Shown here: in pieces, positions 9,801 through 52,335 of the stretch
How positions within the stretch are numbered: the first letter of the stretch is position 1
Layout: each line of letters opens with the position of its first letter
Virus record (IMG/VR): IMGVR_UViG_3300020439_000007
Coordinates: 1-52,335 of that record
Origin: a virus
Strand: one strand, 5' to 3'
DNA length: 52,335 nucleotides
The notes under the pieces: generated by a model
What the model saw: only the letters and a program-made list of their open reading frames with translations
What the model was told of the DNA's origin: nothing
The model's database searches: none
Made by a program: the position numbers and the translations under genes

Positions 9801-12800
9801 GAGAAGGTTATTTTTAACTCATCTTCCGTTCCAGTAGGTCTAACAAACTCTGCAATTTATTATATAATCAAACTTGATGATGACACTATTTCTCTGTCAA
9901 ACTATTACTATGAAGTAATCTCATCTAATGAAAATGTTGAGATTATTAATATTCAAACCCAATCTTTTGGTAAACTAAGTTCTGTAAATCCAGAAATAAC
10001 AGGAGTTAGAGACTCTACTATTATATTTGATCTATCAGATCAAACACTTACTGCTAACTCATTGCCAGCATTCAATTTCTTCCTGTACACTGACGAAGAA
10101 CTCACTGATGAATTTTTCTTTGCAGAGAGAGAACAGGCAGAATTTGACTTTCTTGGAGATGATGCACCAGAAACCAATGCATTTAGTGTAAAAACATCAG
10201 GTGTTATTGGAGAACCTAATGCAAAATTAGAGTTGATTATTGAAGATAGTGTTCCTAATAATCTGTTCTATAATTTAGTTCCCATTGAGTATAATGGCGC
10301 TTCTATTGATAAGTTGGGCATCATTAATGATAGATTTAATATTAGAAACTCAAATAAATTATCAATTATCGATAGTGGTTACAATTTAACTACTCGTATC
10401 ACTGGTGTTACTTCTACAGGTTTTAATTATACACTTAGAGAAACTCCAGAAAGAGAATTCTATCCAGATAATGAAGCAACTCTAAAGTATTCTACCACTT
10501 CTTTGACTGCTATTGGACCTGTTGATAGAGTCCAATTGGACTCTGCTGGACGTGGTTACAGGTCACTTCCTAATGTTAGTAAAATTGTTAGTGCTGGTGG
10601 AACTGGTGCAATTTTCTTACCATCAAGTACACGTATAGGTAAAGCAGACTCTGTTGTTCTTACTGACATTGGATTTGACTATCCACCAGATAAAACTCTT
10701 CGTCCTATTGCACAATTCCCATATACTTACAAGATTGAACCTCTATCCAAGTTCCAATCTATTAAGATTGCAAATCCTGGTGTAAATTACTTTATTCCTC
10801 CACAACTAGTAGTTCTTGATGGATTTACTGGAAGAGTTAACTCAGAAGTTTCTCTTGATTATAATATTGGAGATACTGAAGTAACAATTGTAAGAAATAC
10901 TACAGGTCTTTACAATGTAACTCCAAAAATTCTTCCAATTAATAATCCAAATGGAGTTAGAATTCAAAATATTAATTTTGACAGTAATACAAAAGATGTA
11001 GTCATTGGATTTGCTGTTACTTTCAATAGTTCTGAAGACTATCCGTTTAGAGTTGGTGATAAAGTAATTGTTGAGAACACTAACACGGATACAACAGTAT
11101 CTAATCCTAAAGGATTCAACTCTGCAGATTATGGATATACTTTATTCACTTTGACAGCTGTAGACCCTGATCTTACTGGAGATAATCCAACAATTACTTA
11201 TAATTTAGCAGATAATTTAAAGTCTGGAGAACAACCAGGTAATTTTGATAGCTTTGATTCTTTTGGTACTGTAACACCAGAATCTTACTTCCCACAATTC
11301 GATATTGAATTGGAAAAAGATTCATTTAGAGCAGGTGAGGTTATTATTGCTCAAGACGATAATGTTGGTGTTGTTCAATCTTATGATTTAAGAAATGAGT
11401 ACCTTAGAGTAAGATCTAAAATTCCATTCTCTCAAGATGATTTGATTATTGGTCAATCCTCTCAGAATAAAGGTTTGATATCTTCTGTTGATGGCATTAG
11501 TTCCAAATACAAGATTGGATCAAATAGTATTACCAGAAAAGGTTGGTTGAAAGATACTGGCAAATTAAACCAGTTCTTCCAAAGAATGCATGATAATGAT
11601 TACTATCAATACTTCTCGTATTCTGTTAGATCTTCTATCAGTTTTGAAAAATGGAATCCGATTGTAAGTAATCTTAACCATACTGCAGGATTTAAGAAGT
11701 TTAGCGAACTTGTTATTGATTCATATGATCCAACAGTATCTGGTATTCAAACAGCACAAGACCTTAATACTGTTACTGCTATTTCAGATCTTACAAACAT
11801 TGTTGATCTCAATACAGTAAAAGACTTCGATATTGCTAGAGAAAAGAGTATTGATGTTAGTGGAACATTAGTATCAAACGAAGTCCTATTTAACTTACCA
11901 TTCCTTGCAAAATATCAAGAATTCATTGGTAATAGAGTTCTTACCATTGATGATTTCAGTGATCAATTTGATGGAGTTCAGAGAGGATTTGAATTATTTA
12001 CAGATACCAACCCTATTTTTGAAATTGAATTTGATGGAAGTGATATTGCCAACATTGGTGTTGGTGAAGGTACAATTAATGTCACCAATCACTATTTTGT
12101 CAGTGGTGAACTTATTGAGTACGTTCCACCAGGTAACAATAAAGCAAATTCTATTCAGATTCAAGAGACTGACTTTGGTGTTGGTATTGGAACAACAACA
12201 TTACTTCCATCTCAATTCTATGTCATTAAACAGGATAATCAGAAAGTTAGAGTCGCAACTTCTGCAACTAATGCACTTCTGTTTAATCCAATTGGTGTTG
12301 GACTGACTGGAGTTGGTATCGGTTCTACGCACATTTTTAGAGCAATTGAACCCAATAATAGACTCCTCATCACTGTTAATGGAACAATTCAATCACCAAT
12401 GGTTGGAACTGCAGTAACGACTGCATTGTCTGCAAATGTTGGTATTGGAAGTACCGTTATCGACGTTGTAGGAATTACTTCTGTCTTCGGAGGAGACATC
12501 CTTAGAGTTAATGATGAGGTAATGCTCATTGCTGCATCCGATAGTACAAATAATACTTTAACAGTTAGAAGAGGGTGGATGGGATCTACTGAAGCATCCC
12601 ATAGTTCTTCTGACGTATTAACAAAGCAGTCTGGTAATTATGCTGTTGTTCGCAATACTCTTCACTTTATTGAAGGTCCATGGGGCAATCTTCCTGTTGG
12701 TTTAGGTACTACAGCACAAGATGCTGGTGATGCGGATTACACTGGTTTAACAACAAGTTCCAGATTTAGTGGTCGTATCTTCCTGAGATCTGCACTTAAC

Positions 12801-15800
12801 CAGGCATTTACCACGAGCTTCTTACCAGCATATGATAATAACTTTATTTACGATGATATTTCTGATCAATTCAATGGCATCAATACATCATTTACTCTGA
12901 AGTATAAGGGAGCAGATATTGATAATGTTACTGCAGAGAACACTATCATCTTGATTGATGATATATTCCAGGGTCCTCAAAGACTTGGTAACGTTCTTAC
13001 AAACATTGAGGGTGATTATAAGTTAGAAGCAGGTGGTGGAGCACTACAACTTGGTTTTAATGGTGAAGTTACTGACCCATCAAATCATAATGATATTAAT
13101 GTTAATAAAGTTCCTAGAGGTGGAGTTATTGTTAGTGTTCAATCAAAAGAAGGTTATGGATTCCAACCTTTAGTTGGTGCAGGCGCAACTGCTCTTGTTT
13201 CTGCAGCAGGAACAATTACTAGCATCTCAATCGGTAATACTGGATCTGGATATAGATCTGGTCTACAAACGGTATCTGTTGGTATTCAAACAGCAAGTTA
13301 TGGTTCCGCAAATATCACTGCAGTTGGTGTTGCTACTGTTGTAGATGGTCATGTTGTTGGTGTTGCGATTACTAACTCTAAGGTATTCTATGCTCCTAGA
13401 GAAATATCTAATATTGGATATAGTTCTATTACAGGTGTAACAACTGTTACAACTGCCACACCTCATAACTTACAGTTGGGAAGTGAAGTTCAGATTGTTG
13501 GTGCAGCGTTTACATGTGATTATTACCCACCAGTGGACGTTACAAACGCCCTGTATGACACTACAACTGGTATTATGACAGTTACTACTGGAGTGTCAAC
13601 ATTTACAGTAACTAACTTTACTTACGATAATACTACTGGTCTTGCGACAGTAACGACATTGGAACCAATGAAGATTGTTCCAATGACTGCAATTGGAAGA
13701 AGTTTTAGTCTTGCTGGACTGGCACTTTCTTGTGTTGGATATGGCAATACTATTGGTGTTGTTGGATTTAATTACAACAATGTTAACGGTATTGCTGAGA
13801 TTATCACAGATGCTGATCATGGACTCAGCGGTGGTGATGACTTTAAGATGAGAGAACTTATCTTTAGTTGTGACGTTGGAGGAGCAACGGGTTATGGACA
13901 GACGTTTACTATTACACAGTTCCAGTATGACAATGTTACTGGTCTGTCTACAATTACTACTTCTGATCCTATTACTGGCGTTATAGGAATCGGTAGTGAT
14001 ATTAGACTTGATAATCTTGAGTTCTCTTGCCCAGGAGGATCTGGTATCACAACTACGATCTTCCCAGATGGAACACAGGGCAATACATTCACAGTCACTA
14101 ACGTAATTGCATCTGATCAATTTGAATTAAATGTTGGTGTATCCACTATTCCTCATACCTATGTTGAGAACGATGCTGGACAAGTAACTGCAGGTCTTAC
14201 AACGACTAAGTTCCCTGATGGATCTCAAGGATACTTCTTCAGAGTTCAAGCAGTTGGTACAACAACTTCATTTACAGTTAATGTTGGACCATCTACAATC
14301 TCTCATACTTACGTCTCTGGTGGTGTTGTTCAAGTTGGTATTACAACAAATATATTCCCAGGAAATGCACAGAACTCCCCACTTGGTGATACCTTTATTG
14401 TATCTTCTGCACCAAACTGGAATCAACTAACATTTAACGCTGGAATATCTACCATTCCACACAACTATGTTAGTGGAGGATCTCTCACCTTTGGTCATAA
14501 ACTTAAGGTTGGCACTGATGTTGCACTTACTGGTTTAGCATTTACTTGCTCTTATGATGGTGGTGTTGGAATTCTTACTCACCCAAGAGTAAGTGATCCA
14601 ACATACTGTGGAACACAAGTTACTAGAATTAATAGCATTGATGAATTTGAAATCAATGTTGGTGTAAGTACTGCTGAATCTTTCTATACTTCTGGTGGTA
14701 TTGTTGAGGAGATTATTCTTGCTCCTAGACCAATTAATAACTCCCCATCAGGACAAGACCCTGCAACTAATGGCACGTCTATTGTTAAGGTAATTGATGA
14801 GTTCTCCTTCATCATAAACTCTGGTCCATCTCCATACACTCATGCATATAAGAGATGTGGAGAGGTAAGAGTTCCTCTTGATGTTGTAATTGATCAACCA
14901 TTACCATACTTCAACGTACCTCTGATTTATGCTGAAGGCAATACTGGATTTGGAACTGGAGCAACTGTTGACCTTGCTCCAAGTTTAGATAGCACAATGC
15001 TCAACTTTGAAGTTAACAACTTTGGATATGGTTATGGATCTGGAGAGAAATTAACAGTATCTATTGGTGGAACCACTGGCATTCAAACATTCGCAGCGAA
15101 GACCTCTAATGCAATCCTTCCAGTTGTTGCTGGTGGTGACTACCCACATACTTTCGTAAGTGCTGAAGAGGGAAGTGTAAATGTAACGGGCATTGGAACA
15201 ACTACTCCAACTGATGCAACATACTCTGGTTCTACTGGAGAACTGGTCTTAACTATTCCAGGTCATTCCTACACAACATCAAATACTGTTGGTATTGGAA
15301 CTAGCACCATTGCATTTACCTGCGGTAGTGATGGCAATCAATCAATTCTTTATTATCCAAAACCAACTGATCCAATTGCTGGTATTGTAACTGGAATTAC
15401 TACTACAACTGCAAATACTATTACATTATTTGTTGGTATCACAACTCTTGTTAAGTATCCTGTTACTGATGCAACATATGATCCAGACACTGGATTCTCA
15501 GTTCTTACCATTGGACCACACAACTTAACAACGGCAAATACAATCAGACTTGCAAACGAATCTCTGCTGTTCAAGTGTTCACTTGATGGTTACAGCACTA
15601 TTGAGGCATATCCAAGACCAAACAAAGATACAAATATCTATGGTAAGTCTGTAGGTATTACCTCATATACTTCTGATAGTATCACTGTATTTGCTGGACC
15701 ATCTCCTGTAGGTCTTAGATATCCACACACATTTGTTGGTGTTGGTTCTTACAGACAATTTGAATTGACCATTGATCGCGTATTCCAATCTAAGTTCTCT

Positions 15801-19294: not shown

Positions 19295-22200
19295 ATGCCA
19301 CAAGAAACTAATCTCAACGTATCTCCTTATTTTGACGACTTTGATCCAGCGAAGAATTACTACCGAGTATTATTCAAGCCAGGTCTGCCAGTTCAAGCAA
19401 GAGAGTTAACGTCACTCCAAGCCGTTCTTCAGGATCAAGTTGAACAAATCGGAACCCACTTGTTCAAAGAGGGTTCCATTGTCATACCTGGTCAAGTTAA
19501 CTACAATAATACACTATTTGCAGTTGAAGTTGAACCAGAGTATCTTGGCATTCCTATTGAAAGTTATGCCGACGAACTAGTCAACGTCTACATTAGAGGA
19601 CAAAGCTCTAATGTACTTGCAAAAATTGTTTTTTATGAGGGAACAGCAGCATCTGAACGTGGATATTATACCTTCTTTGTAAGTTATGTTGGTGCTGGTA
19701 ATGAAGGTAAGGATACTTTTGATGATGACGAGACTCTTCTTTTAGAAGACAATCTTTCGACTCCTGTAGTAAACTTCCAGAGTGGTCAGGGATTTGCAAA
19801 TACTGCACCAATCAACTCAACATCTATTGGTTCTGCAGTATTTTTAACGGAAGGTGTATACTTTCTGCGCGGAACTTTTGTAAAGGTTCCTGGACAGACT
19901 CTTGTTCTTGACGCACACAAATCTGACCCATCCTATAGAGTTGGTCTTGAGATTTTTGAAGAGGTTATTTCTTCTGGTCAAGATAATACCCTTACTGACA
20001 ATGCGAAAGGATTTAATAACTATGCTGCACCTGGTGCGGATAGATTAAAAATTAGTGCTGTACTCTCTAAAAAACCATTAGAGTCTGATAAAAGTGAAAA
20101 CTTTGTTCAGTTGATGCTCATCAGAGATGGTAGTTTACAGCATATTCAAGATAGAACACAATATAATGAGTTAGCAGAAGAGCTGGCAAGAAGAACTTAC
20201 GATCAGTCTGGTGACTTTTATGTAAAACCATTCTCTATTCATGCTAGAGAATCTCTTGATGATCGTAAAGGTAATAATGGTATCTTTACAAAAGACCAAT
20301 TAACATACAACAATAATATTCCTAGCGATGATCTTGGTACATATAAGATCTCTCCAGGTAAAGCATTTATTCGTGGTTTTGAAGTAGATTCTGGAACAGT
20401 TCATTATCTGGATTTTGAAAAGACCAGAACTGTCAAAACATTAAAGGACCAAGCAGTTAATTATTTTACTGGTCCAACTTTAACACTGAATAGAACATTC
20501 GGTGCTCCTAGAATTGGATTCAGCACTTCTTCAACTATTAGTCTTAGAGATTCTAGAATTGGTGTCACAAGCACAACGCCTGCTGGTAAAGAGATTGGTC
20601 TTGCTCGCGTATATGACCATGCATTAGAATCTGGATCGTATTCTAGTGTAGCATCTGATATTAATGAGTGGGATATTACTCTGTATGATATTCAACCATA
20701 TACTGAGATTAGTATTAACCAGTCAACTACACTGAATGTACCTACTTATATTGAAGGTAAGTCTAGTGGTGCAACCGCACACTTACGCTTTAACACCACT
20801 ACTGGTATTGTAACCGCTTATGGAACCAAGGGTTCTTTCCTTAAAGGAGAAAAGTTAGTATTTAATGGTGTTGATGATGGAAGAATCTCAACAGCAGTTA
20901 CAGAATACAGTGTTGCTGACGTAAAGTCTCTGTATAGTAGCGTTGGTGCTGGACAGACCTTTAATAGTGATGTTAAGCAGTATGCCAAAGCAGAATTTAG
21001 TGGAATCACAATTTCTCCTAAGTCTGGATCTGCACCAGGAATCTCTACAGTAACATCTTCTGAGCAACTGTTCACTGGTGTTGTAAAAATTGGAGATCTG
21101 GTATCATTTACCAACAGTCTTCTTGGAAGTACATCGGTTAAGACTTATGCGAAAGTTGACAGTATTACTGATTCTAACAATATTATCATTTCTGGCATTA
21201 CTACAGTATCACTTATTAATGACGGCGGTCTGCCAACCTCAAGCATTACTCCCTCCGACTTTAAGGTCCTCGGTTCACGATTCCAATCTTCAACCGACAA
21301 CACTTTATACACTCCTCTGCCAAAATCGTTCGTCTCTTCAGTAGACCTTACAAAATCAACAATCTCTATTAAGAGAGAGTTTAACGTAACAATTACTGCT
21401 AACGCAACTAATACAATTCAAGCAGGAGAGAATGAGACCTTCCTCCCCTATGATGAAGAGCGTTACGTCCTTATCAATAGTCAAGGTGGATTTGAAATCT
21501 TAACTGCTGATAAATTCAGATATACAAATGGTGGAAGAGAGTTAAGAATCTTTGGTCTTGATGTTACTGGTTCTGGACGTTTAATTGCAACTTTAAGTAA
21601 GAATAATGTAACCAATAAAGTCAAAAACTCGATCAAAACAAATTCTATTATTGTCAATAAGTCTAAACTTTCTTCATCTGGTATTGGATCGACCACATTA
21701 AATGATGGACTTACTTATGGTTCTTATGGTTATGGTCTTAGAGTTCAAGACAGAGAAGTTTGTCTTCTTGAACCAGACGTAATCAAAGTTTATGGTGTAT
21801 TTGAAGCAAATGATACTGGAGCTCCAGATCTTCCATCAATTTCTCTGTTTAATCTTAACGGACCAACAGGTAAAACAGAAGACTTTGTTATTGGTGAAGA
21901 GATTGTTGGTCAAACTAGTGGCGCTATTGGTCTTTTTATTGAAAGACCAAATTCCGCTTCAGCAAGCATTGTATATCTGAACGACTTACGTTTTGAAATT
22001 GGAGAATCTGTTCTCACAGAGACTACAGGAATTACTGGTACAATTAATGACTTTGATGAGGGTGATGAAAATATTCTCAATCGCTTTACCTTAGATTCTG
22101 GTCATAGAGATACTATTGTAGATTACTCTAGACTGATTAGAAAACCTAACGCTAAAGCACCAAGAAGACAGTTAAGAGTTATTTTTGAATCTGCAGAATA

Positions 22201-25200
22201 TACAGACTCTACTGAAGGTGATCTGACAACGGTATCTTCTTACGATCAGTTTGATTACTGTGATCTTCCACTTCTTAAAGATGATACAAGATTAACTGAT
22301 GTTATTGACATTAGACCAAGAGTAAGGCAGTTTGATTCCAATTCAAGTTCCGTATCTCCTTTTGAGTTTAATTCAAGAACCTTTGAAGATGGAACAAACT
22401 CCGCTAAGAATATTCTTGCATCTGATGAGTCTATTCTCATAACTTATAGTCACTATCTTCCTAGAATTGATAAACTATACTTTAATCCAGACGGAGGATT
22501 CCAACTGCTGAAGGGTGTTCCTAGTGAGTCTCCTCTTCCCCCACTTCCAATTGAAAATGCCCTGGAAGTAGCAACAATAGATCTTCCACCGTATATCTGT
22601 AATGCAGAGAATGTAAGCATTTCTCTGAAGTCTCATAAGAGATACAGAATGCAAGACATTGCACTTCTGGAAGATAGAATTAAAAATCTTGAGTATTATA
22701 CTGCACTGTCTCTGCTTGAAGCAAAGACTGAAGCATTAATCATTCCAGATGAAAGTGGTCTGACTAGATTCAAGTCTGGTATTTTTGTTGATAACTTTAC
22801 AACTACCAGGAATCAACTCAAAGCTGGTAGTATTACCAACTCTATCGACCCAGTTAATACTGAATTGAGACCTTCTCACTTCACAACTGAAGTTGATATG
22901 TTAATCGGTTCCAGATCTCTGATTGGCATTGGAACCACAGCAAATCCAAATGTAAGTCCTGCATTTGTAACTGACATTGTTGGTTCTAACTATAGAAGAA
23001 CTGGTCAGGTAGTTACTATTAACTATGTTGATAGTCTTGAAATTCAGAACCCATTCGCAACAAGAGTTGAGAACGTAACTCCATATCTGGTTACAACTTA
23101 CGCTGGTAATATTGAACTCTTCCCAACCTCAGATATCTGGATTGACCAGGTAAGATTGGCACCACAGAGAATCAATGTAGATGATTACACCCAAACCAGA
23201 TTACAACTTGAGTTTGCTGGTTATGATGCACAAACAGGTCTTGGACCTGTACGTTGGGGTGCTTGGGCAGCAACGTGGACTGGATCTTCTACTACATCCA
23301 CAAGCAGCACGGTTCAAACAGGCAGCAGACAGTCTCAAAGTGGCAGAACAATTACTACTACCAATAGCTTTAGAACAACAACTACTACAACCACTACTAG
23401 AACTGGTACAGAAAATAGAAGTGGCGATAGACTCAGAGTTTCTGAACAGACTGAAGTTATCAATGAAGGTGACAGAGTTGTAAGTTCTGATGTGATCGCA
23501 TTTATGAGATCACGTAATATTGAATTTACTGGTAGAAAGTTTAAACCAAGAACCAGAGTTTATGGATTCTTTGATGGTACTAATGTAAACAACTTCGTTG
23601 TTCCAAAACTACTTGAAATTAGAATGATTAGTGGATCATTCTCTGTTGGTGAGACTGTAACTGGCACAATGCCAACCAGCGCAACTCCTACTGTTGGAAA
23701 TAGTACTCCAGCAATTTCATTCAGAGTTGCTCAGTCCAACCACAAGTATGGACCAATTAATGCACCCACTGATGTATATACACTCAGTCCATATGACGAG
23801 AACTACACAATTCCAGAGAACTATTCAAGTTCTTCCATCATTCTTAATGTAGATACCAGAACTCTCTCTGAGAGCAATCAGTCACTTTATACTGGTTGGG
23901 TTAGAACTGGTATGCGCCTTAGAGGTGCTAATGGTGAAGCAGAAGTTATTGATGTTAAATTAGTAACTGATAGAATTGGAACGGTAATTGGTACGTTCTT
24001 TATTCCAAATCCAAATAATCCAACAAATCCAACCTTTGAAGTAGGCACAAAGGTATTCAGACTTACCAGCAGTTCTGTTAATAGTAATCTTGGTGGTCTT
24101 ACTGTCACGAGTGGAGAAGAAGCATACTTTGCTTCGGGTACTCTTAATAATGTTCAAGAGACTATTAGATCTACCAGAAAACCACGATTTGAAAGAGTAA
24201 CAGCATCTGAGTCGAGACCTGCAACTGATGTACAGGTGACAACCGCAGTAACTAACAGTACTCAGACTAGTGTTAGAGTCTTGCCACCACCTCCTCCACC
24301 GCCACCGCCACCACCGCCACCACCAAGGCCAAGACCTTCGGCACCGAGACCTAATCCTCCAAGGCCACGTCCTGCGCCACCACCACGTCCTCCAAGACCT
24401 CCAAGACCCCCTCGTCCACCTCGTCCGCCACGTCCACCGAGACCACCGCGTAGAAGAGGTAAAGACCCCTTGGCGCAATCATTCTCGATTGTTGATGATC
24501 CAGGAGCATTTGTAACTGAGGTTGAAGTATTCTTCAGAACGAAGGACCCACTTCTACCTGTCACAGTACAATTGAGACCAATGGTCAATGGATATCCTTC
24601 TAATGAAGTTTACCCATTTGGTGAAGTAATTCTTGAATCTGACGACATTGAAGAATCTTTTGATGCAACAATTCCTACAACTGTTGTATTCCCAGCACCA
24701 GTTTATCTGAATGGTAATACAGAGCATTGTGTTGTTCTTCTTTCTGATTCTAATGAATATACCGTCTGGATTTCCAGAATGGGCGAAGTAGACGTAAGTA
24801 CACTTCTGCAAGCAGAATCTAGACAAGTTCTTGTATCTGCACAACCACACCTTGGTTCTCTGTTCAAATCTCAGAATGGTTCTACTTGGAATGCTTCTCA
24901 GTATGAAGATCTCAAGATGAATCTTTATACTGCAGGATTTGATGAAAGTGCTACTATCTCCTTCTTTAACCCCGAACTTGCTAGAGGTAATCAGCAAATT
25001 GCAAACCTTACTAAGGATGCTCTTGAATTTGAATCTAAGCGTGTAATTGTTACTGCCAATGATATTATTGATACATCAAACTTCGTAATTGGTAATACTA
25101 TTGTTCAAAAGGATGCAAATGTAAGTGGTGACTATGTTGGTGCTGGTGGATCTGCCACAGGCGCTCTGACAATTGTTAATGCTGGTATTGGTTACACTCC

Positions 25201-26947
25201 ATCTGATGGAAATCAATTCACCTTCACTAACGTACCTCTGATTACATTCAGTGGTAATGGTAGAAATGCTACTGCTGACATCACAATCGGTGCTCAGGGT
25301 GCTACAAATGGTGTTGCTATCGCTGCAACTATCAATACTGGTGGATCTGGATACCAAGTTGGTGATGTATTTACAGTTGGTAGCTTTGGTAATGATCAAT
25401 TAGGAAGAAACCTTCAACTGTCTCTTGGTAATGTAACTGGTATCAATGAACTAATCATTGATAACATTCAAGGCGAATTTGAGATTAATGCTGCCAAACC
25501 ACTGCAGTATATTAGTCCAAGCACAGGAATCACAACAATGGTTGCTGTTGCTGGTGGTGATATTCAAGTCAGTGATTTTGAACTTGCAACTCTTGCCGAA
25601 GATGGATTGCACATCAAGGTTAATCATAAGAACCATGGTATGCACTCTACCCTCAATACTGTAAACATTAAAGGTGTTAAGGGTGATCTTAAGGCAACAA
25701 CTCTTACTGCTGAGTATACAAATTCAGATTCTGGAGCAATCAGTATTGCAAGTACTATTGGTTTTGAAACATTTGAGAATGTATCCGTTGCATCTACTAA
25801 CCCTGGTTATGTAATTCTTGATGATGAAATTATCGCTTACACTGGCGTTGCAGCAGGACAACTGACTGGAATCACCAGAGGTGTTGATAATACAAGAACC
25901 TTCACATATCCATTGAAGACTTCTATTCAAAAGTATGAGAACAACGGCATCTCTTTGAGAAGAATCAATACTGATCATACTCTTCAAGATGCTCTTGTAA
26001 ACAGACCTATTACTCTTGATTCTTACTATATTAGAATTAATACTGCTATCAATGGTGTTAATAGAAATAGTGGTTCGGGACTTCCCAAACTCTATATTAA
26101 TAATGCCAAATCTAGTGGTGGTGACATGATGTTCGCAACACAGAACATTCAATATGAAGCAGTTAGACCTATTGTTCAAACAATGACTCTGCCAGGAACA
26201 GCAATTTCTGCAGAACTTAAAGGAATTACTGCAACTAGTGTTGATGGTAGTGAAATCTCATTTGAAGAGACTCAAAAAACTACAATCAATCTTGACGAGG
26301 ACACTTATCTGCCCGAACCTAGAATGATTGCTTCTAGAGTCAATGAACTTGCACAACTTGATAATCTCCCTGGCAATAAGTCCATGGAACTGACATTTAC
26401 ATTGTCTACAGCAAATAGCAATGTATCTCCAGTTATTGACCTTGACCGAGTTGGTATGGTTCTTATCTCCAATAGAGTAAATGCTCCAATTACGGATTAT
26501 AAGAATGACTCTAGAACTGCATCCCTTAATGAAGATCCAACTGCGTTTATCTACGCAAATAAACCAGTAGAACTGGAGAATCCAGGAACTTCTATCAAGG
26601 TTCTTCTTGCAGGTTATGTCAATAGTTACAATGACATTAGAGCGTTCTACTCTATCAGTAACTCTCCAGAAGTTGAACCACTTTACTATCCATTCCCTGG
26701 ATATGATAATCTGGATATAAATGGAAACATCCTTGATTTTGCTAATAGTAGTGGTCTCCCTAACAAGAGAGTTCCTAAGACAGATGTACTTGCATCTGAG
26801 AGTCAAAATCTGATTTACAAAGATTATGAATTCAGTATTGATAATTTGCCAGAGTTTAAATACTTTAGTATTAAACTTGTAGGAACCTCTACAAATCAGG
26901 CATATCCACCAAGGATCAGAGACCTCAGAGTTATCGCACTTGCATAA
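19295..26947 (+). CDS. Large tail/baseplate structural protein, DUF4815-like N-terminus, 2550 aa
   Basis: It lies where T4 has its short-tail-fibre and pin genes (gp9-gp12). The N-terminus NLNVSPYFDDFDPAKNYYRV, then LFKPGLPVQARELTSLQAVL and IGTHLFKEGSIVIPG, fits the large cyanophage proteins with a DUF4815-like domain (from memory). Further along are a Thr/Ser-rich linker (~residues 1330-1380), a conserved segment FMRSRNIEFTGRKFKPRTRV (~1404-1423), a 59-residue Pro/Arg hinge (~1664-1722), then DPLAQSFSIVDDPGAFVTEV with FFRTKDPLLPVTVQLRP, two GxGY units (~1960-2020) and a DDEIIAYTG...GITRGVDNTR unit (~2180). No signal peptide or membrane span is present. It is likely a fibre- or pin-like part of the baseplate periphery, the hinge separating an anchored N-terminal part from a distal part. 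The exact T4 equivalent is not assignable. Confidence 0.78.
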   Translation: MPQETNLNVSPYFDDFDPAKNYYRVLFKPGLPVQARELTSLQAVLQDQVEQIGTHLFKEGSIVIPGQVNYNNTLFAVEVEPEYLGIPIESYADELVNVYIRGQSSNVLAKIVFYEGTAASERGYYTFFVSYVGAGNEGKDTFDDDETLLLEDNLSTPVVNFQSGQGFANTAPINSTSIGSAVFLTEGVYFLRGTFVKVPGQTLVLDAHKSDPSYRVGLEIFEEVISSGQDNTLTDNAKGFNNYAAPGADRLKISAVLSKKPLESDKSENFVQLMLIRDGSLQHIQDRTQYNELAEELARRTYDQSGDFYVKPFSIHARESLDDRKGNNGIFTKDQLTYNNNIPSDDLGTYKISPGKAFIRGFEVDSGTVHYLDFEKTRTVKTLKDQAVNYFTGPTLTLNRTFGAPRIGFSTSSTISLRDSRIGVTSTTPAGKEIGLARVYDHALESGSYSSVASDINEWDITLYDIQPYTEISINQSTTLNVPTYIEGKSSGATAHLRFNTTTGIVTAYGTKGSFLKGEKLVFNGVDDGRISTAVTEYSVADVKSLYSSVGAGQTFNSDVKQYAKAEFSGITISPKSGSAPGISTVTSSEQLFTGVVKIGDLVSFTNSLLGSTSVKTYAKVDSITDSNNIIISGITTVSLINDGGLPTSSITPSDFKVLGSRFQSSTDNTLYTPLPKSFVSSVDLTKSTISIKREFNVTITANATNTIQAGENETFLPYDEERYVLINSQGGFEILTADKFRYTNGGRELRIFGLDVTGSGRLIATLSKNNVTNKVKNSIKTNSIIVNKSKLSSSGIGSTTLNDGLTYGSYGYGLRVQDREVCLLEPDVIKVYGVFEANDTGAPDLPSISLFNLNGPTGKTEDFVIGEEIVGQTSGAIGLFIERPNSASASIVYLNDLRFEIGESVLTETTGITGTINDFDEGDENILNRFTLDSGHRDTIVDYSRLIRKPNAKAPRRQLRVIFESAEYTDSTEGDLTTVSSYDQFDYCDLPLLKDDTRLTDVIDIRPRVRQFDSNSSSVSPFEFNSRTFEDGTNSAKNILASDESILITYSHYLPRIDKLYFNPDGGFQLLKGVPSESPLPPLPIENALEVATIDLPPYICNAENVSISLKSHKRYRMQDIALLEDRIKNLEYYTALSLLEAKTEALIIPDESGLTRFKSGIFVDNFTTTRNQLKAGSITNSIDPVNTELRPSHFTTEVDMLIGSRSLIGIGTTANPNVSPAFVTDIVGSNYRRTGQVVTINYVDSLEIQNPFATRVENVTPYLVTTYAGNIELFPTSDIWIDQVRLAPQRINVDDYTQTRLQLEFAGYDAQTGLGPVRWGAWAATWTGSSTTSTSSTVQTGSRQSQSGRTITTTNSFRTTTTTTTTRTGTENRSGDRLRVSEQTEVINEGDRVVSSDVIAFMRSRNIEFTGRKFKPRTRVYGFFDGTNVNNFVVPKLLEIRMISGSFSVGETVTGTMPTSATPTVGNSTPAISFRVAQSNHKYGPINAPTDVYTLSPYDENYTIPENYSSSSIILNVDTRTLSESNQSLYTGWVRTGMRLRGANGEAEVIDVKLVTDRIGTVIGTFFIPNPNNPTNPTFEVGTKVFRLTSSSVNSNLGGLTVTSGEEAYFASGTLNNVQETIRSTRKPRFERVTASESRPATDVQVTTAVTNSTQTSVRVLPPPPPPPPPPPPPPRPRPSAPRPNPPRPRPAPPPRPPRPPRPPRPPRPPRPPRPPRRRGKDPLAQSFSIVDDPGAFVTEVEVFFRTKDPLLPVTVQLRPMVNGYPSNEVYPFGEVILESDDIEESFDATIPTTVVFPAPVYLNGNTEHCVVLLSDSNEYTVWISRMGEVDVSTLLQAESRQVLVSAQPHLGSLFKSQNGSTWNASQYEDLKMNLYTAGFDESATISFFNPELARGNQQIANLTKDALEFESKRVIVTANDIIDTSNFVIGNTIVQKDANVSGDYVGAGGSATGALTIVNAGIGYTPSDGNQFTFTNVPLITFSGNGRNATADITIGAQGATNGVAIAATINTGGSGYQVGDVFTVGSFGNDQLGRNLQLSLGNVTGINELIIDNIQGEFEINAAKPLQYISPSTGITTMVAVAGGDIQVSDFELATLAEDGLHIKVNHKNHGMHSTLNTVNIKGVKGDLKATTLTAEYTNSDSGAISIASTIGFETFENVSVASTNPGYVILDDEIIAYTGVAAGQLTGITRGVDNTRTFTYPLKTSIQKYENNGISLRRINTDHTLQDALVNRPITLDSYYIRINTAINGVNRNSGSGLPKLYINNAKSSGGDMMFATQNIQYEAVRPIVQTMTLPGTAISAELKGITATSVDGSEISFEETQKTTINLDEDTYLPEPRMIASRVNELAQLDNLPGNKSMELTFTLSTANSNVSPVIDLDRVGMVLISNRVNAPITDYKNDSRTASLNEDPTAFIYANKPVELENPGTSIKVLLAGYVNSYNDIRAFYSISNSPEVEPLYYPFPGYDNLDINGNILDFANSSGLPNKRVPKTDVLASESQNLIYKDYEFSIDNLPEFKYFSIKLVGTSTNQAYPPRIRDLRVIALA
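24281..24457 (+). repeat. Proline-arginine minisatellite coding a rigid hinge
   Basis: Within the 2550-residue gene: a run of 14 Pro codons, then mixed Pro/Arg/Ala/Ser, then a seven-fold R-P-P series ending in PRRRGKDP. The DNA is a locally C-rich, purine-poor tract of CCA/CCT/CCG codons, unlike the AT-leaning sequence around it. Different synonymous codons are used in successive units, so the repeat is probably kept for the peptide and not merely a recent slippage product. Confidence 0.85.
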
Positions 26948-42947: not shown

Positions 42948-43610
42948 ATGAATTCATATCATAGGTTTTTGGATATTGGGGATTATGTCCCCAATATTGA
43001 CGTGTCAAAATATAGAACAGAAGGAATACGTTGGCCAGAGTTTCATAAACAATTACAGTTTAAAGATCTTGGCAACGATAAAATAAAACCATGGTTAGAG
43101 GGTATGGGATTTACCTCTACATGGATTGAATTTTTCTATACTCCACCACATGATGATGGAGTAATTCACTCCGATAATGTTTACTATGCTGACTGGGCAA
43201 AGCTAATATTTCAATTTAATGGTGAAGGTAGTACCATGAGATGGTGGAAGTCCGATATGGTAATGAGAGTCAGTACTAGTGCAGAGCAAGTTTGCTCTAC
43301 TCAAATTCCAGAGAGAAGTGAATATAATGTGGGTGATAGAACTAATGACCACTATCATGGGCAAGTTCTTGTAACCAGAGAGCAATACTCTACCTTACAA
43401 TATGAAGCAGATGTATCTACACCAAGTTTAGTGAATGTGGGTCCTCTCCATAGTTCACATAATCCAACAGACAATAAGAGATTCACTATTACTATTGCAC
43501 TGATGGATAAAAATACTCCTTATGAGAGGAGAATCTTATGGGACGAAGCAGTGGAAGCGTTCAAACCTTACACAGTTGATTCTTTAGTAAACCTTTACGT
43601 CTCAAAATAA
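42948..43610 (+). CDS. Putative 2-oxoglutarate/Fe(II)-dependent oxygenase-like protein, 220 aa
   Basis: ATG 2 bases after the gp20 stop, so it is probably coupled. The metal-binding facial triad expected of this superfamily is present: H-x-D in GVIHSDNVYY (H74, D76) and a distal His in VGPLHSSHNPTDNKRF (H168 or H171), with R178 seven to ten residues later as a 2OG carboxylate anchor. Strands follow in the usual double-stranded beta-helix order (WAKLIFQFNGEG, STMRWWKS, LVNVGPLH, RFTITIALMD). This resembles the small aspartyl/prolyl-hydroxylase-like oxygenases common in marine cyanophages; that is family knowledge, and the substrate is unknown. Its last 50 bases overlap, tail to tail, the radical SAM gene on the other strand. 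An inactive jelly-roll or cupin protein is the alternative. Confidence 0.6.
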   Translation: MNSYHRFLDIGDYVPNIDVSKYRTEGIRWPEFHKQLQFKDLGNDKIKPWLEGMGFTSTWIEFFYTPPHDDGVIHSDNVYYADWAKLIFQFNGEGSTMRWWKSDMVMRVSTSAEQVCSTQIPERSEYNVGDRTNDHYHGQVLVTREQYSTLQYEADVSTPSLVNVGPLHSSHNPTDNKRFTITIALMDKNTPYERRILWDEAVEAFKPYTVDSLVNLYVSK

Positions 43611-45312
43611 ACACAGTGTGAGGATCGTTTCTATCGAATTCCTTGAATTCTGTGTCTACCGCATAAGTATCTTTACCACATTGAATTTGATACGGGTATT
43701 CAGTGTCTTCATCAAAAATAAATGCCCTTTGGAGTTTTAAAGTATCTTCAGTGACTAGATTTAAATCAGATAGAATATCAAAAATACTTTCTTTATTTCT
43801 GAACATAAAGGCAAAACTTGCAGCATGAAGAGTGTGTCCATGTTTACCTTGATCTAAGATTTTACCAGTCTTCATGTAGTGAGACACAGATCTTTCAATT
43901 TCCCTATAGTGATCCCCAATAACACCAGGATCATTTTTTATGTAATCGAACAGTTTATCATAAAAAGACCGATACCCCATTCCAAGACTATTGAGATGTT
44001 TTGCAACAAGTTGAGTATATCCTGCAATATGAAATTGAATGACTAACCACCCGTAAAGATATGCTTCAATAAGTTCGTCATTAGTCATTGTGTTGGTTTC
44101 CGAGATCAACTCAATGACTTCTTTAATTCCATGATCATCTTTACTAAAGGACATATAGTCTTCAGCTTTGATAGTTTTAATGCCATGAACTTCTCTTGAC
44201 AGGGCACTATTTAAATCAGTATCACCAAACATTTGACAGAACCAAACATCTATAGATTCATGTTGCCCACACTCAAGTATCTGAGAAAATCCATCCTTCC
44301 AAGAATCTAAGGTTTCTTCAGGTAATCCAAGTATCAGTTCAGTATATGTCTTTACGCCATATTTTTTACTCTTCTCGATTTGCTCAGAAATTTTATTGAT
44401 ACTCATGTTCTTTCTCTTAATTGATTTAAGAGTCGGTTCATTCATACTTTGAACACTAAGTGTCACTCCTCTACTAATATCACCAAGAATTTGAGCAATC
44501 TCAAAGATGACTTCGGTTGAGTTCTTTGAATACTGAACATTAATCGCTTCTATTTTACCACGATTTGCTGCATCTCTGAAGAGCTTGGCAATCTCAAGGT
44601 CTCTCTCCTTGAACATTCCAAAGTTTGCATCTGCATTGAATATGAATCCAACATTATGTCTTGCTGCCCAATCAATGTCATGTTCGATTCTTTCTAATCC
44701 AAAGTGCTTAACTTTTTGATAAGTCATTCCACCCCAGTCACAATAAGTGCATCTGTGAGGACAACCTCTATTGGTCTCTATCGTCATAGACCAAAGAACG
44801 TCAGGATTGTCTGCAACTATTTTATTGAATACTCCCAATTGATATGGGCTTTGAAAGTCCAGGTCATCTATTCTTTCTTTTTTATAGATTCTCTCATAAG
44901 GTTCATGCATTATTATCTTCCTAAGAAGATCTAAAAATGATTGCTCACCTTCAGAGATAATAATACAGTCAATAAAGTCATACTTTGCAAGTTTCTCGGT
45001 TGCTTGAGGTCCTCCAAATTCTATAACGCAGTTTGGATACTTCTCCTTTATCAACTTGGCAACATGTAAATTGTATTGCTCATTCCAAATGTAAGTACTG
45101 AATGCACAAACTACTGGGTTCTCTAATCTAGCAACGAGTTCTTCTGGGTTCTCTCTTTTAAAAATAAAATCTTTTAAGTGATATCCACTAGCAACATCAC
45201 CATATTGTAAACAATATGCCCAGAGACAACCAACACTATAAGGTAACCAATACGTGTCTTCCTTTCTGACTTCTACCGCATACTGCGGTTGGAACATGTA
45301 TAAGTTTCTCAT
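43561..45312 (-). CDS. B12-binding-type radical SAM enzyme 1, 583 aa
   Basis: The radical SAM cluster motif C-x3-C-x2-C is in NRGCPHRCTYCDWGG (C184, C188, C191), with an ETNRGCP lead and a NADANFGMFKERDLEIAKLF segment (~residues 218-237), TLSVQSMNEPTL and ELILGLPEETLDSW following in order as in a TIM-barrel radical SAM domain. The N-terminal ~150 residues look like a cobalamin-binding Rossmann domain: VCAFSTYIWNEQY, VIEFGGPQATEK (GGP turn) and IIISEGEQSFLDLL. The classical D-x-H-x-x-G cobalamin motif is not seen. The last ~200 residues form an unrecognised helical domain. It overlaps the next operon gene by ATGA, and its 3' end overlaps the oxygenase-like gene. Enzymes of this class usually methylate or rearrange unactivated carbons or phosphinates. 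The substrate is unknown. Confidence 0.85.
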   Translation of the reverse strand: MRNLYMFQPQYAVEVRKEDTYWLPYSVGCLWAYCLQYGDVASGYHLKDFIFKRENPEELVARLENPVVCAFSTYIWNEQYNLHVAKLIKEKYPNCVIEFGGPQATEKLAKYDFIDCIIISEGEQSFLDLLRKIIMHEPYERIYKKERIDDLDFQSPYQLGVFNKIVADNPDVLWSMTIETNRGCPHRCTYCDWGGMTYQKVKHFGLERIEHDIDWAARHNVGFIFNADANFGMFKERDLEIAKLFRDAANRGKIEAINVQYSKNSTEVIFEIAQILGDISRGVTLSVQSMNEPTLKSIKRKNMSINKISEQIEKSKKYGVKTYTELILGLPEETLDSWKDGFSQILECGQHESIDVWFCQMFGDTDLNSALSREVHGIKTIKAEDYMSFSKDDHGIKEVIELISETNTMTNDELIEAYLYGWLVIQFHIAGYTQLVAKHLNSLGMGYRSFYDKLFDYIKNDPGVIGDHYREIERSVSHYMKTGKILDQGKHGHTLHAASFAFMFRNKESIFDILSDLNLVTEDTLKLQRAFIFDEDTEYPYQIQCGKDTYAVDTEFKEFDRNDPHTVFILRRKGLLKNQLCKV

Positions 45313-47036
45313 AGTGCTGTGATTTTATTTTTTAAAAGATTCTTTCTTTTTAAAACCCAGATATCGTCTCTTTCTTCTTCCATTCTAGCATTATCTACCA
45401 AATATTCTCCAACATGTTGAGGGTAGTCTATATTTGGATTATATATGTAACTTCTTTGTAGTTCCATAATATCGTCTGGAATAAACATTCCACAACAATT
45501 CCTAATATAGTTGATGACTACTTCTTTATGGGACCAGAAGAATTCAAAGTCGGTTCCCATACTCAATTCAAGAGTATGCCCAGTATCTTTATCAGACAAA
45601 ATTTTTCCATTCTTCAAATAGCTAGATACTCGTTCTTTTAACTCTCTAAAGTGTTTTCCAAGAGAACTATAATCTTTACCCAATGTATCAAATATATTAT
45701 CATAAAATTTACGATAACTAACTCCAAACTCTTTATTCAAATAGTCTGAGATTATCTCAGAGTATCCGTTGATGTGTAATTGTATAATCATCCACGAGTA
45801 GAGATATGCCTCTATCATTTCATCTGTAGTCATTGAATTTGTTTTATTGATAATCTCAACAATTTCTTTTACATTATCTTCTTTATTTGTGAATGACACA
45901 TAGTCCTCAGCATTAACAACCTTAATACCATACTTATCTCTATTAGAATTTAACTCAGTATTACCAAATACCTGACAAAACCAAACATCAATACTATCTT
46001 GCCCACAATCAAGAAGTTGACATATACCATCTTTCCAGGATTCTAAAGTTTCCTCAGGTAATCCCAAAATCAATTCAGTATATACATTTAAGTTACGTTC
46101 TCTTGCTTTCTTTACAAACTCGGCATTCCTTTTATTGTTTTGCCTTTTAATTGCACGGAGAGTAGGTCCATTCATAGACTGAACACTCATAGTCACACCA
46201 CGTCTATCATATGGACCAAGTGCCTCACTAATATCAAAGACAACATCTGTTGCATTTTTTGTATATTGAACAGTCAGGTCATCAATGATTGCATCTGGAT
46301 GATCTGCTGCTTTTCTTAGCATCTTTGCAATCTTAAGATCTCTATCCGCAAATATCCCAAAGTTTGCATCTGCCACCATTAGGAATCCAACTCGATGTGT
46401 GGACATCCAATTAATATCTCTTTCCACTTGGTCAAGATCAAACTTTTTAATTTTATTCATCCAGGTTCCCCAATCACAAAAAGTGCAGTGATGAGGACAA
46501 CCTCTGGTGGTTTCAATTAAAGTTGCCCAATTATATTCTGGATATTGATTTACAATATCATCAAAGATTCCAGATTCATATGGACTGGTATAACTTAAGT
46601 TCTCTAATTGAAGTCGTTCATAAACTGGTGGTATTGAGTGTCCGTTTTTTATCCTATTGAGAAGATCAACAAATGCTTGCTCACCTTCTCCAAGTAAAAC
46701 AGTATCTACATACTCTCTATCTACTAGACCTCTTGTTGCTTGTGGTCCACCAAATTCAATAACACATTTTGGATATCTTTTTTTAATCTCCTCTGCAAGA
46801 ATTAGATTATATTGTTCATTCCAAATATATGTACTAAAAGCGCAAACATCAGGATCTTTTATTCTATCGAGGACTTTATTAATGCTCTCTCTTTTAAATA
46901 CAATCTCTCCTAGTTCACATTCTGGTATCTGTTGTTTTGCATAACTCCAGAGACAACCAGCAGCATATGGTAACCAGTAATTTTTTGTTCCTTTAATTGT
47001 AATCTCGTGCTGAGGTTGGAACAAGTATACCTTCAT
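45309..47036 (-). CDS. B12-binding-type radical SAM enzyme 2, 575 aa (paralogue of enzyme 1)
   Basis: Same architecture and length as its neighbour. Cluster motif TRGCPHHCTFCDWG (C180, C184, C187); N-terminal B12-type region with WLPYAAGCLWSYA, VCAFSTYIWNEQYNLILAEE, IEFGGPQATRG and LLGEGEQAFVDLL; barrel segments VADANFGIFADRDLKIAKML, RRGVTMSVQSMNGPTLRAIK and TELILGLPEETLESWKDG. Side by side, the two proteins share long runs (AFSTYIWNEQYNL, IEFGGPQAT, ELILGLPEETL), so they arose by tandem duplication and diverged, keeping both clusters. D-x-H-x-x-G is absent here too. The start ATG (47034-47036) lies inside the upstream gene by 44 bases and its stop overlaps enzyme 1 (ATGA), making a compact operon. 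Two related enzymes could act on successive steps or form a pair. Confidence 0.85.
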   Translation of the reverse strand: MKVYLFQPQHEITIKGTKNYWLPYAAGCLWSYAKQQIPECELGEIVFKRESINKVLDRIKDPDVCAFSTYIWNEQYNLILAEEIKKRYPKCVIEFGGPQATRGLVDREYVDTVLLGEGEQAFVDLLNRIKNGHSIPPVYERLQLENLSYTSPYESGIFDDIVNQYPEYNWATLIETTRGCPHHCTFCDWGTWMNKIKKFDLDQVERDINWMSTHRVGFLMVADANFGIFADRDLKIAKMLRKAADHPDAIIDDLTVQYTKNATDVVFDISEALGPYDRRGVTMSVQSMNGPTLRAIKRQNNKRNAEFVKKARERNLNVYTELILGLPEETLESWKDGICQLLDCGQDSIDVWFCQVFGNTELNSNRDKYGIKVVNAEDYVSFTNKEDNVKEIVEIINKTNSMTTDEMIEAYLYSWMIIQLHINGYSEIISDYLNKEFGVSYRKFYDNIFDTLGKDYSSLGKHFRELKERVSSYLKNGKILSDKDTGHTLELSMGTDFEFFWSHKEVVINYIRNCCGMFIPDDIMELQRSYIYNPNIDYPQHVGEYLVDNARMEEERDDIWVLKRKNLLKNKITAL

Positions 47037-47916
47037 TATTTTTCATTGCTAGATCGTAAAAATATTTATCGTCCCACCTGGAGATGTCTCTCTCCATTAG
47101 AACATCATTATCTTTACTATAAGTAAAAAAATCATCTAAAGAAAATTTATCTCTATCATTATTCCACCACTCATGATATGCTTCATGACATTTGACAAAG
47201 CTGAGTTTTGGTTCCCATTTTAATTTACCAAATGGACCCTGATGGCTAATGCCAGCAAGGTAAGGATTTATTGGAATCAAAGGTATCGAATAACTTTTCC
47301 CAGATTGATTTATATAATAGTCTGGACTACCAGAAGTTGCAACATATTCAAGACCGTCGTGTATTCCAGAATCTCTATCAATATAAATGTGATTGGCAAT
47401 CGTATAATCAAACTTATATTTACCTAAAGGTTTGTGTAGATTAAGTAACTTCTCTACGTAGTCTCTATTAAGTAAGGAAGCACCTAATGAGTATTGTGAT
47501 TTAGTTGGATGAAGATAAAAAGGTATTATGTCTGGAGACTCAAATCCCAACTGTATAGAATCCCAGTCATACGGAATTCTACTCATAAATTCATCCCAAG
47601 TGAAGTGCCACTTCTTCATTAAAGATAAATCGTAATCATCTTCCATAAAAAGAAGATAATCCTCATCTGTTGCCAACCACTCTTCAAAAAAATCAAACAA
47701 CAAAGATCCATACCAGTTAATCCACTGTGAGCAGTTATCTGGATAATTACCTGTTAGGTTGTCTAAAAAATTTTTTGGTGGACCATCTTTAGGACAGGAT
47801 AGCATCTCTATCCTTGTATATGATAATCCAAGGGAATCAAATTGAGATTCCATATACTTCTTTCTATCTACTTTACGATCTACATTCGTATAGTAGATAT
47901 GAGGGAACCCATCCAT
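46993..47916 (-). CDS. Glycosyltransferase family 25-like protein, 307 aa
   Basis: First gene of the minus-strand operon. The start is taken as ATG at 47914-47916 (a GTG codon one step upstream is also in frame). The N-terminus HIYYTNVDRKVDRKKYMESQ is the typical INLDRR-DR opening of GT25/LPS-type glycosyltransferases, and LLFMEDDYDLSL (E92, D93, D94) is the acidic metal- and sugar-nucleotide-binding motif of the family. Later segments include GASLLNRDYVEKLLN (a family-like turn), YTIANHIYIDRDSG and ISHQGPFGKLKW. GT25 members transfer galactose or glucose onto glycan, LPS or hydroxylysine. The actual acceptor here is unknown. The last 44 bases overlap radical SAM 2. Transcription probably starts at the minus-strand late promoter 47936-47941. 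Confidence 0.8.
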   Translation of the reverse strand: MDGFPHIYYTNVDRKVDRKKYMESQFDSLGLSYTRIEMLSCPKDGPPKNFLDNLTGNYPDNCSQWINWYGSLLFDFFEEWLATDEDYLLFMEDDYDLSLMKKWHFTWDEFMSRIPYDWDSIQLGFESPDIIPFYLHPTKSQYSLGASLLNRDYVEKLLNLHKPLGKYKFDYTIANHIYIDRDSGIHDGLEYVATSGSPDYYINQSGKSYSIPLIPINPYLAGISHQGPFGKLKWEPKLSFVKCHEAYHEWWNNDRDKFSLDDFFTYSKDNDVLMERDISRWDDKYFYDLAMKNNEGILVPTSARDYN

Positions 47917-47935
47917 CACAAAAAGTCTTTACTGA

Positions 47936-47941
47936 TATTTA
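47936..47941 (-). promoter_or_regulatory. Putative late promoter for the GT25-radical SAM operon (minus strand)
   Basis: On the minus strand this reads GGATAAATATC, a late promoter core match, ending 20 bases before the ATG of the GT25-like gene; the expected start is near 47930. It is separated by only 3 bp (TCC) from the plus-strand TAAATA at 47945-47950, so the two form the palindrome TATTTA-TCC-TAAATA and cannot easily be bound by two polymerases at once. Confidence 0.6.
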
Positions 47942-47944
47942 TCC

Positions 47945-47950
47945 TAAATA
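47945..47950 (+). promoter_or_regulatory. Putative late promoter for gp67 and downstream head genes
   Basis: CCTAAATAAC lies 24 bases before the ATG at 47974. It forms the plus-strand half of the back-to-back promoter pair described at 47936. A small palindrome CATTG-TAA-CAATG (47964-47976) covers the start codon of gp67, and no Shine-Dalgarno sequence is visible. Confidence 0.6.
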
Positions 47951-51614: not shown

Positions 51615-51635
51615 AAATATACTTGTTATATCGTG

Positions 51636-52335
51636 ATGAAAGATCTCCTTATTACATTTGGTGATAGTTGGACTTTTGGTGAGGGATCTGCCTACAAAGA
51701 TGGCATGAACCAACCACAATATGAACGAATTCAACATGATCCAGACTTATGTTGGGAAAATGGTTGGAGAAGGCGTGTTGTAGAACATTTTGATTTTGAC
51801 CATATAAACTTTGGTGTGGGTGGTAGTAGTAATGACAAACAGTTTAGAGTAGCAAAAAAATTCTTTGCTTCTAAAAAATTTAAAGAGATATATCAACAGA
51901 AACGAAAGATATATGTGTTGTGGGGAACAACATCGGTCAATAGGTATGACTTTTGGGTAAAAGAAACATACCAGTATGAACACATATTTTTAAAGGATAT
52001 TAATGGTAAAGACGCTAACCCAGAACAGTGGGGAGCAGATGCACAAGCTATTGATTATATTGCTGATTGTTTGAATAAATATTCTTACTGTGAACCAGCT
52101 AGAGTTAAAGAATTAGAGATTGAATTTTTACATTGGAATCAATACTTTAAACTTCTAGGGATTAAAAATTTTTGGTATGACACTTTTTGTTCTTTTAATT
52201 ACACAATAAAAGTTCCAAACTTTTTTGACATGAATAAAAAGAGAAGGGATTTATTATCCGTGATTGTGGATAACCATAGGAAAGATCATCCATCTTTAAG
52301 AGACTTCTTCCCTCAAGACGATTTTGTATATGCTT
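51636..52335 (+). CDS. SGNH/GDSL hydrolase-like protein, N-terminal 233 aa (runs off window)
   Basis: Open from ATG 51636 to the window edge. The start MKDLLITFGDSWTFGEGSAY contains block I (GDS, S11 as nucleophile), and INFGVGGSSNDKQF (~residues 59-72) holds the block II Gly and an N in the family-like GxGGSSN turn. VLWGTTSVNRYDFW is at the place of block III, where the usual GxND is altered to GTTS. A block V D-x-x-H might be in the DHPSLRDFFP segment near residue 222. Similar proteins are common in marine phages (family knowledge from memory), where they may deacylate or esterify sugars or act on lipids; the substrate here is unknown. It is AT-rich, like the minus-strand cassette and unlike gp23. 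Confidence 0.65.
   Translation, partial: MKDLLITFGDSWTFGEGSAYKDGMNQPQYERIQHDPDLCWENGWRRRVVEHFDFDHINFGVGGSSNDKQFRVAKKFFASKKFKEIYQQKRKIYVLWGTTSVNRYDFWVKETYQYEHIFLKDINGKDANPEQWGADAQAIDYIADCLNKYSYCEPARVKELEIEFLHWNQYFKLLGIKNFWYDTFCSFNYTIKVPNFFDMNKKRRDLLSVIVDNHRKDHPSLRDFFPQDDFVYA

What the first reader, a model, noticed from the sequence alone, without database searches (positions are those of the whole stretch)
42948..47916. Accessory chemical-tailoring island inside the head gene cluster
Between portal gp20 and core gp67, where T4 has only head genes, lie a 2OG/Fe(II)-oxygenase-like gene, two B12-type radical SAM enzymes and a GT25-like glycosyltransferase, the last three on the opposite strand as a tight operon. 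None is an assembly gene. The combination (radical methylation or rearrangement, hydroxylation, glycosylation) looks like a small pathway that modifies a glycan, peptide or small molecule, perhaps of the virion or host surface. It is the best candidate for an undescribed system in this window.
Basis: partly seen in the sequence, partly recalled or inferred. Interest (0 to 1): 0.78.

Follow-up and report, generated by a model that had tools for sequence, protein, structure and literature searches.

The report
Cyanophage late-expressed sugar-tailoring gene island
Inside the head-building genes of an uncultured group of cyanobacterial viruses sits a backward-facing set of enzyme genes with its own late switch; it probably adds methyl groups and sugars to a surface glycan, but what it modifies is not known.

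Summary
The four genes are real. Between portal gp20 and a small conserved ORF before gp21 lie a 2OG/Fe(II)-oxygenase-like gene (OXY, +), two cobalamin-dependent radical SAM genes (RSA, RSB, -) and a GT25-like glycosyltransferase (GT, -). RSA and RSB are TokK/CysS-type C-methyltransferases by sequence, with the CX3CX2C motif and the TokK Trp76 equivalent invariant; they are diverged paralogs in a phage clade. The island occupies one fixed site in uncultured Kyanoviridae-like cyanophages; 69 related genomes have an empty site, and no phage isolate in the collection carries RSA. A late-promoter motif precedes the reverse operon in every island genome examined, so expression is probably late. OXY and GT are each absent in about a third of 40 islands, and GT and the second radical SAM gene are often swapped. 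Several cellular homologs lie in surface-polysaccharide or nucleotide-sugar clusters, and three large island contigs also carry a GT25/aminotransferase/sugar-dehydrogenase array beside gp41. Best reading: a late glycan-tailoring (C-methylation plus glycosylation) cassette. Substrate and location (virion or host surface) are not shown.

The parts
42948..43610 (+). OXY, 2OG/Fe(II)-oxygenase-like gene, 220 aa
   Evidence: ORF; H74, D76, H168, R178 invariant in 19 homologs; weak oxygenase fold match; no family hit
43561..45312 (-). RSA, cobalamin-dependent radical SAM methyltransferase homolog, 583 aa, third gene of the reverse operon
   Evidence: PF04055 E 1.7e-15; TokK E 2e-73; invariant CX3CX2C and W76
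45309..47036 (-). RSB, paralogous cobalamin-dependent radical SAM methyltransferase homolog, 575 aa
   Evidence: PF04055 E 3.1e-16; TokK E 1.2e-66; 48% identical to RSA
46993..47919 (-). GT, GT25-like glycosyltransferase, 308 aa (GTG start; ATG at 47916), first gene of the reverse operon
   Evidence: PHROG 2835 E 2e-30; fold nearest COLGALT1 and mimivirus R655
47936..47943 (-). Reverse-strand late-promoter-like motif GATAAATA, 20 bases before the GT ATG
   Evidence: Sequence; motif in every relative's gap, in 2 of 69 empty sites
47944..47950 (+). Forward late-promoter-like motif CTAAATA for the downstream head genes
   Evidence: Sequence; forward motif in all 69 empty sites

Best explanation
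The island is a late-expressed glycan-tailoring cassette of uncultured T4-like cyanophages. Shown: GT, RSB and RSA are overlapping reverse-strand genes behind a conserved T4-type late-promoter motif, at a site that is otherwise empty; RSA and RSB have the sequence features of class-2 cobalamin-dependent radical SAM C-methyltransferases. Inferred from homologs: RSA and RSB methylate unactivated carbons of a sugar, nucleotide sugar or sugar-bearing chain, using methylcobalamin and 5'-deoxyadenosyl radicals with host-made cobalamin; GT adds a sugar; OXY, co-directional with gp20, hydroxylates a substrate residue or sugar where it is present. Inferred more weakly: the product completes a glycan whose earlier steps (aminotransferase, sugar dehydrogenase, sulfotransferase, five or six GT25 enzymes) are encoded beside gp41, and late timing makes decoration of new virions slightly more likely than alteration of the host surface against superinfection.
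For: TokK E 2e-73 and 1e-66, CysS E 9e-36 and 3e-39; invariant C184/C188/C191 and W76 in 20 homologs, W76 aligning with TokK Trp76 (role in PMC13331322). Reverse-strand late-promoter motif in every island gap against 2 of 69 empty sites; cyanophage late consensus NATAAATA (PMC2984593). Cellular homologs beside LicD, GDP-mannose dehydratase, epimerase, DegT, NeuB or GT2 genes. GT25/DegT/dehydrogenase array in contigs that carry the island (G001-G003); DegT absent and at most one GT25 in G007-G009, which lack it. GT fold nearest COLGALT1 and mimivirus R655. Purifying selection on RSA and RSB like that on head genes.
Against: No substrate, product or expression has been measured. Cellular homologs are only 26-37% identical, and some lie in other contexts (Streptomyces; FAD oxidoreductase or acetyltransferase neighbours). 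TokK and CysS act on small-molecule natural products, not polysaccharides. OXY and GT are each missing in about a third of islands. Island and array co-occurrence rests on three against three contigs. Promoter assignment is by motif only.
Confidence: 0.5

Rival explanations
1. Virion-protein modification: OXY hydroxylates a residue of a capsid or tail protein, GT (GT25, as in collagen hydroxylysine galactosylation) glycosylates it, and RSA/RSB C-methylate the protein itself, as radical SAM peptide methylases do.
For: Late-promoter motif and position in the head cluster; GT fold nearest COLGALT1 and mimivirus R655; OXY's weak solved-structure matches are mostly JmjC-type protein hydroxylases (NO66, MINA53, YxbC).
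Against: No collagen-like Gly-X-Y tract in any window protein examined; GT occurs without OXY and OXY without GT; RSA/RSB are closest to small-molecule methylases, not to peptide methylases.
Confidence: 0.2
2. Peptide (RiPP-like) or small-molecule natural product made by the phage, with RSA/RSB as maturases. The ~50-115 aa ORF at the operon head of a GT-less subclade would be a precursor.
For: A conserved small ORF (YPGPFxTxSDNDDxIAH) lies first behind the late-promoter motif in that subclade; TokK, CysS and KedN5 act in natural-product pathways.
Against: The ORF is missing from most islands, including the window; no transporter, protease or synthetase in the island; no family match ties RSA/RSB to RiPP maturases above cut-off.
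Confidence: 0.1
3. DNA hypermodification: the oxygenase, GT and radical SAM enzymes decorate phage DNA bases to evade restriction.
For: Phage base-modification pathways combining oxygenases and glycosyltransferases are known (own knowledge).
Against: GT is closest to GT25 enzymes; no T4 DNA glucosyltransferase is among its 50 best fold matches; no Tet/JBP match in seven contigs (but no control rang); late rather than early promoter motif.
Confidence: 0.05
4. Unrelated accessory genes collected at one permissive insertion site, with no shared pathway.
For: Partial independence of OXY, GT and the second radical SAM gene; gene-by-gene mosaicism; an OXY homolog beside a psbA-like gene and an RSA homolog beside gp41.
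Against: Conserved order and orientation, overlapping reading frames and a shared promoter motif across diverged relatives; purifying selection on all four genes.
Confidence: 0.15

Closest known systems
TokK / CysS / KedN5 cobalamin-dependent radical SAM C-methyltransferases
   Same: Similarity to TokK from the B12 domain to residue ~470, CX3CX2C motif, Trp at the TokK Trp76 position
   Different: Distant; far below the KedN5 family cut-off (177 and 154 against 700 bits); phage-encoded, tandem paralogs, no natural-product cluster around them
Glycosyltransferase cluster of isolated cyanophage S-SCSM2R
   Same: GT25 genes next to 2OG oxygenases, an aminotransferase and a radical SAM gene in a cyanophage
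   Different: Its radical SAM is annotated as a SkfB/NifB/PqqE-type maturase; no RSA or RSB relative in that genome by tblastn
LPS and radical SAM cassettes in the host-recognition cluster of pelagimyophages (PMC7029224)
   Same: Marine T4-like phages carrying glycosyltransferase and radical SAM cassettes; the glycosyltransferases are read there as O-chain modification
   Different: Different site (host-recognition cluster, not gp20 to gp21) and different phage group; radical SAM subtype not stated in the passages read
GT25 collagen galactosyltransferase COLGALT1 and mimivirus R655
   Same: Best named fold matches of GT
   Different: About 15% identity, TM-score under 0.5; no collagen-like substrate found

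Membership tests
Class-2 cobalamin-dependent radical SAM methyltransferases (TokK/CysS type) | CX3CX2C iron-sulfur motif | tested here: met
   C184, C188, C191 invariant in 20 homologs; PF04055 E 1.7e-15 and 3.1e-16
Class-2 cobalamin-dependent radical SAM methyltransferases (TokK/CysS type) | Hydrophobic residue under cobalt (TokK Trp76) | tested here: met
   W76 invariant, aligned with TokK Trp76
Class-2 cobalamin-dependent radical SAM methyltransferases (TokK/CysS type) | N-terminal cobalamin-binding Rossmann domain | tested here: inconclusive
   PF02310 21.0 and 22.6 bits against a cut-off of 32.1; the TokK alignment covers the domain
Class-2 cobalamin-dependent radical SAM methyltransferases (TokK/CysS type) | Methyl transfer to unactivated carbon | not testable with these tools
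   Needs an enzyme assay
KedN5 family (NF033712) | Score above curated cut-off | tested here: not met
   176.8 and 153.9 bits against 700
GT25 glycosyltransferases | Pfam GT25 match above cut-off | tested here: not met
   No hit for window GT; array homologs E 0.0006-0.0009, below cut-off
GT25 glycosyltransferases | GT25 fold and acidic motif | tested here: inconclusive
   Best fold hits are GT25 enzymes, TMq 0.47; MEDDYD motif, D94 invariant in 26 sequences
2OG/Fe(II) oxygenases | HxD...H iron triad and 2OG-binding Arg | tested here: met
   H74, D76, H168, R178 invariant in 19 homologs; roles assigned by sequence pattern, not by structure
2OG/Fe(II) oxygenases | Recognised family or fold match | tested here: inconclusive
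   No Pfam, PHROG, NCBIfam or significant PDB sequence hit; weak fold hits to NO66/YxbC, TM under 0.4; good hits only to uncharacterised phage proteins
Pelagimyophage host-recognition-cluster cassette | Location in the host-recognition cluster | tested here: not met
   Island lies between gp20 and gp21

The most novel reading that the evidence does not exclude
A phage-encoded system that C-methylates a virion or host-surface glycan late in infection through two cobalamin-dependent radical SAM enzymes, with a slowly changing core (RSA, often with OXY) and exchangeable specificity genes (second radical SAM gene, GT), so that phage lineages differ in surface chemistry.
Probability: 0.25. Interest if true: 0.75.

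Novelty: new variant of a known kind. Interest (0 to 1): 0.5.

Why it matters
Radical C-methylation of unactivated carbons is a chemically demanding reaction known mainly from natural-product pathways. A late-expressed, selected pair of such enzymes inside the head cluster of a cyanophage group found across many metagenomes would link vitamin B12-dependent chemistry to virion or host-surface glycans, and would give a concrete, testable function to accessory genes usually filed as 'auxiliary metabolic'.

Tried and rejected
Collagen-like substrate in the window: no Gly-X-Y tract. Sequence search for OXY in Pfam, PHROGs, NCBIfam, PDB and phage isolates: nothing significant. Tet/JBP-type DNA modification: no match, but no control rang, so not excluded. 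Literature on this island: none found in the papers searched. The match of the L388 oxygenase ORF to phage isolates covers, in the rows listed, only its first 31-72 residues, near photosystem or transaldolase genes, and says nothing about the oxygenase domain. In the gp41-site array of G003 no late motif lies directly before the first array gene.

Full report
The window is a 52,335-base IMG/VR virus fragment. Its portal is closest to those of Kyanoviridae cyanophages (S-SM2 76%), and two large relatives with the same island each encode two photosystem reaction-centre (PF00124) proteins (G001, G002), so the hosts are most likely cyanobacteria.

Anatomy. OXY follows gp20 by two bases on the + strand. 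RSA, RSB and GT read the other way with 4- and 44-base overlaps, and OXY and RSA overlap tail to tail by 50 bases.

Enzymes. RSA and RSB match TokK (E 2e-73, 1e-66) and CysS (E 9e-36, 3e-39). The three motif cysteines and W76 are invariant in 20 homologs; W76 aligns with TokK Trp76, which sits under the cobalt in place of a ligand (PMC13331322). RSA and RSB are 48% identical. In a 40-protein tree the proteins of these phages form one clade together with one more distant viral sequence (99/100), and the second-position genes (RSB side) form a subclade of their own (98/99), which points to an old duplication inside phages. GT matches PHROG 2835 and cyanophage enzymes annotated as family 25; its model (pLDDT 88) is nearest COLGALT1 and mimivirus R655. 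OXY has no family match; 19 homologs keep H74, D76, H168 and R178, and its model (pLDDT 75) gives only weak matches to solved oxygenases and better ones to uncharacterised phage proteins.

Distribution. In the 50,697-record phage collection the only matches to RSA or RSB are two human-faecal phage records at 22-27% identity; no cultured cyanophage there has either. Seven annotated isolates examined have no such island after gp20, and 69 loci have gp20 directly followed by the small ORF. In the portal-based sample, loci with portal identity of 87% or more that reach the site all have island genes, presence is mixed near 80%, and it is absent below about 79%; yet one divergent genome found through OXY (portal 69%) has OXY and RSA. 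Of 40 contigs spanning the site, all have a radical SAM gene, 36 have two or more, 27 have OXY, and 27 have GT, counting L017 whose GT the gene caller missed. Most of these contigs were fetched through their radical SAM genes, so the 40 of 40 is partly by selection. GT and the second radical SAM gene are often replaced while neighbours stay similar: L003 keeps OXY, RSA and RSB at 95-98% with GT at 70%; L009 keeps OXY and RSA at 95% with the second radical SAM at 51% and GT at 47%. Selection is purifying for all four genes; GT is the loosest.

Expression. Between the reverse operon and the small ORF, the extracted gaps show a divergent pair of late-promoter-like motifs, TATTTAT and (C)TAAATA (in L014 the extracted stretch ends before the forward one). 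The reverse-strand motif occurs in 2 of 69 empty sites, the forward one in all 69. The published cyanophage late consensus is NATAAATA (PMC2984593). In the window the reverse motif is GATAAATA at 47943-47936, 20 bases before the GT ATG. This is motif evidence only.

Context. Cellular relatives of RSA are up to 37% identical. Several sit in glycan clusters: Pelagibacteraceae L275 (LicD, GDP-mannose dehydratase, epimerase, DegT), archaeon L264 (NeuB), Yanofskybacteria L261 (epimerase, weak GT2 match), Clostridia L257/L258 (GT2). Others do not: FAD oxidoreductase, acetyltransferase and acyltransferase neighbours. The three large island contigs that reach gp41 (G001-G003) also carry a GT25 array with DegT, sugar dehydrogenase and sulfotransferase genes; G007-G009, without the island, have no DegT match and at most one GT25. 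G003, whose portal is 99% identical to the window's, is among the carriers.

Judgement. Late-expressed glycan tailoring by radical C-methylation and glycosylation is the best-supported reading, at about even odds. The substrate, the role of OXY and the choice between virion and host surface are inferences.

Noticed in passing
L394 (G003:58000-76000), L160, L162: A GT25 array beside the gp41 helicase with DegT aminotransferase, sulfotransferase and nucleotide-sugar dehydrogenase genes; in L394 also a 2OG oxygenase, with a tryptophan-halogenase-like gene nearby.
   Followed up: partly
L380:9168-9515, L043, L045, L049, L065, L372: A conserved 47-115 aa ORF (YPGPFxTxSDNDDxIAH) first in the reverse operon of a subclade lacking GT.
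   Followed up: partly
L043:12108-12464 and L046, L047, L048, L055, L058, L067: A 118-141 aa ORF between gp20 and OXY in one subclade, unknown function.
   Followed up: no
L051:4837-6651: An RSA homolog directly after a gp41-like helicase gene instead of at the gp20 site.
   Followed up: no
L388:960-1592: An OXY homolog (44%) just downstream of an open-ended 278-aa ORF that reads like PsbA (D1), outside any island.
   Followed up: partly
L376: A more divergent phage (portal 69%) with OXY and RSA at the same site.
   Followed up: no
window 3816-17672 and 19295-26947: Two giant ORFs (4618 and 2550 aa) next to baseplate wedge genes.
   Followed up: no
window 51633-52334: A weakly GDSL-hydrolase-like ORF after gp23, found at 39-73% identity in several relatives and not seen in others.
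   Followed up: no
L393 (S-SCSM2R 224249-243052): A cyanophage isolate with GT25 genes, 2OG oxygenases, a radical SAM maturase, an aminotransferase and an amidinotransferase in one cluster.
   Followed up: partly
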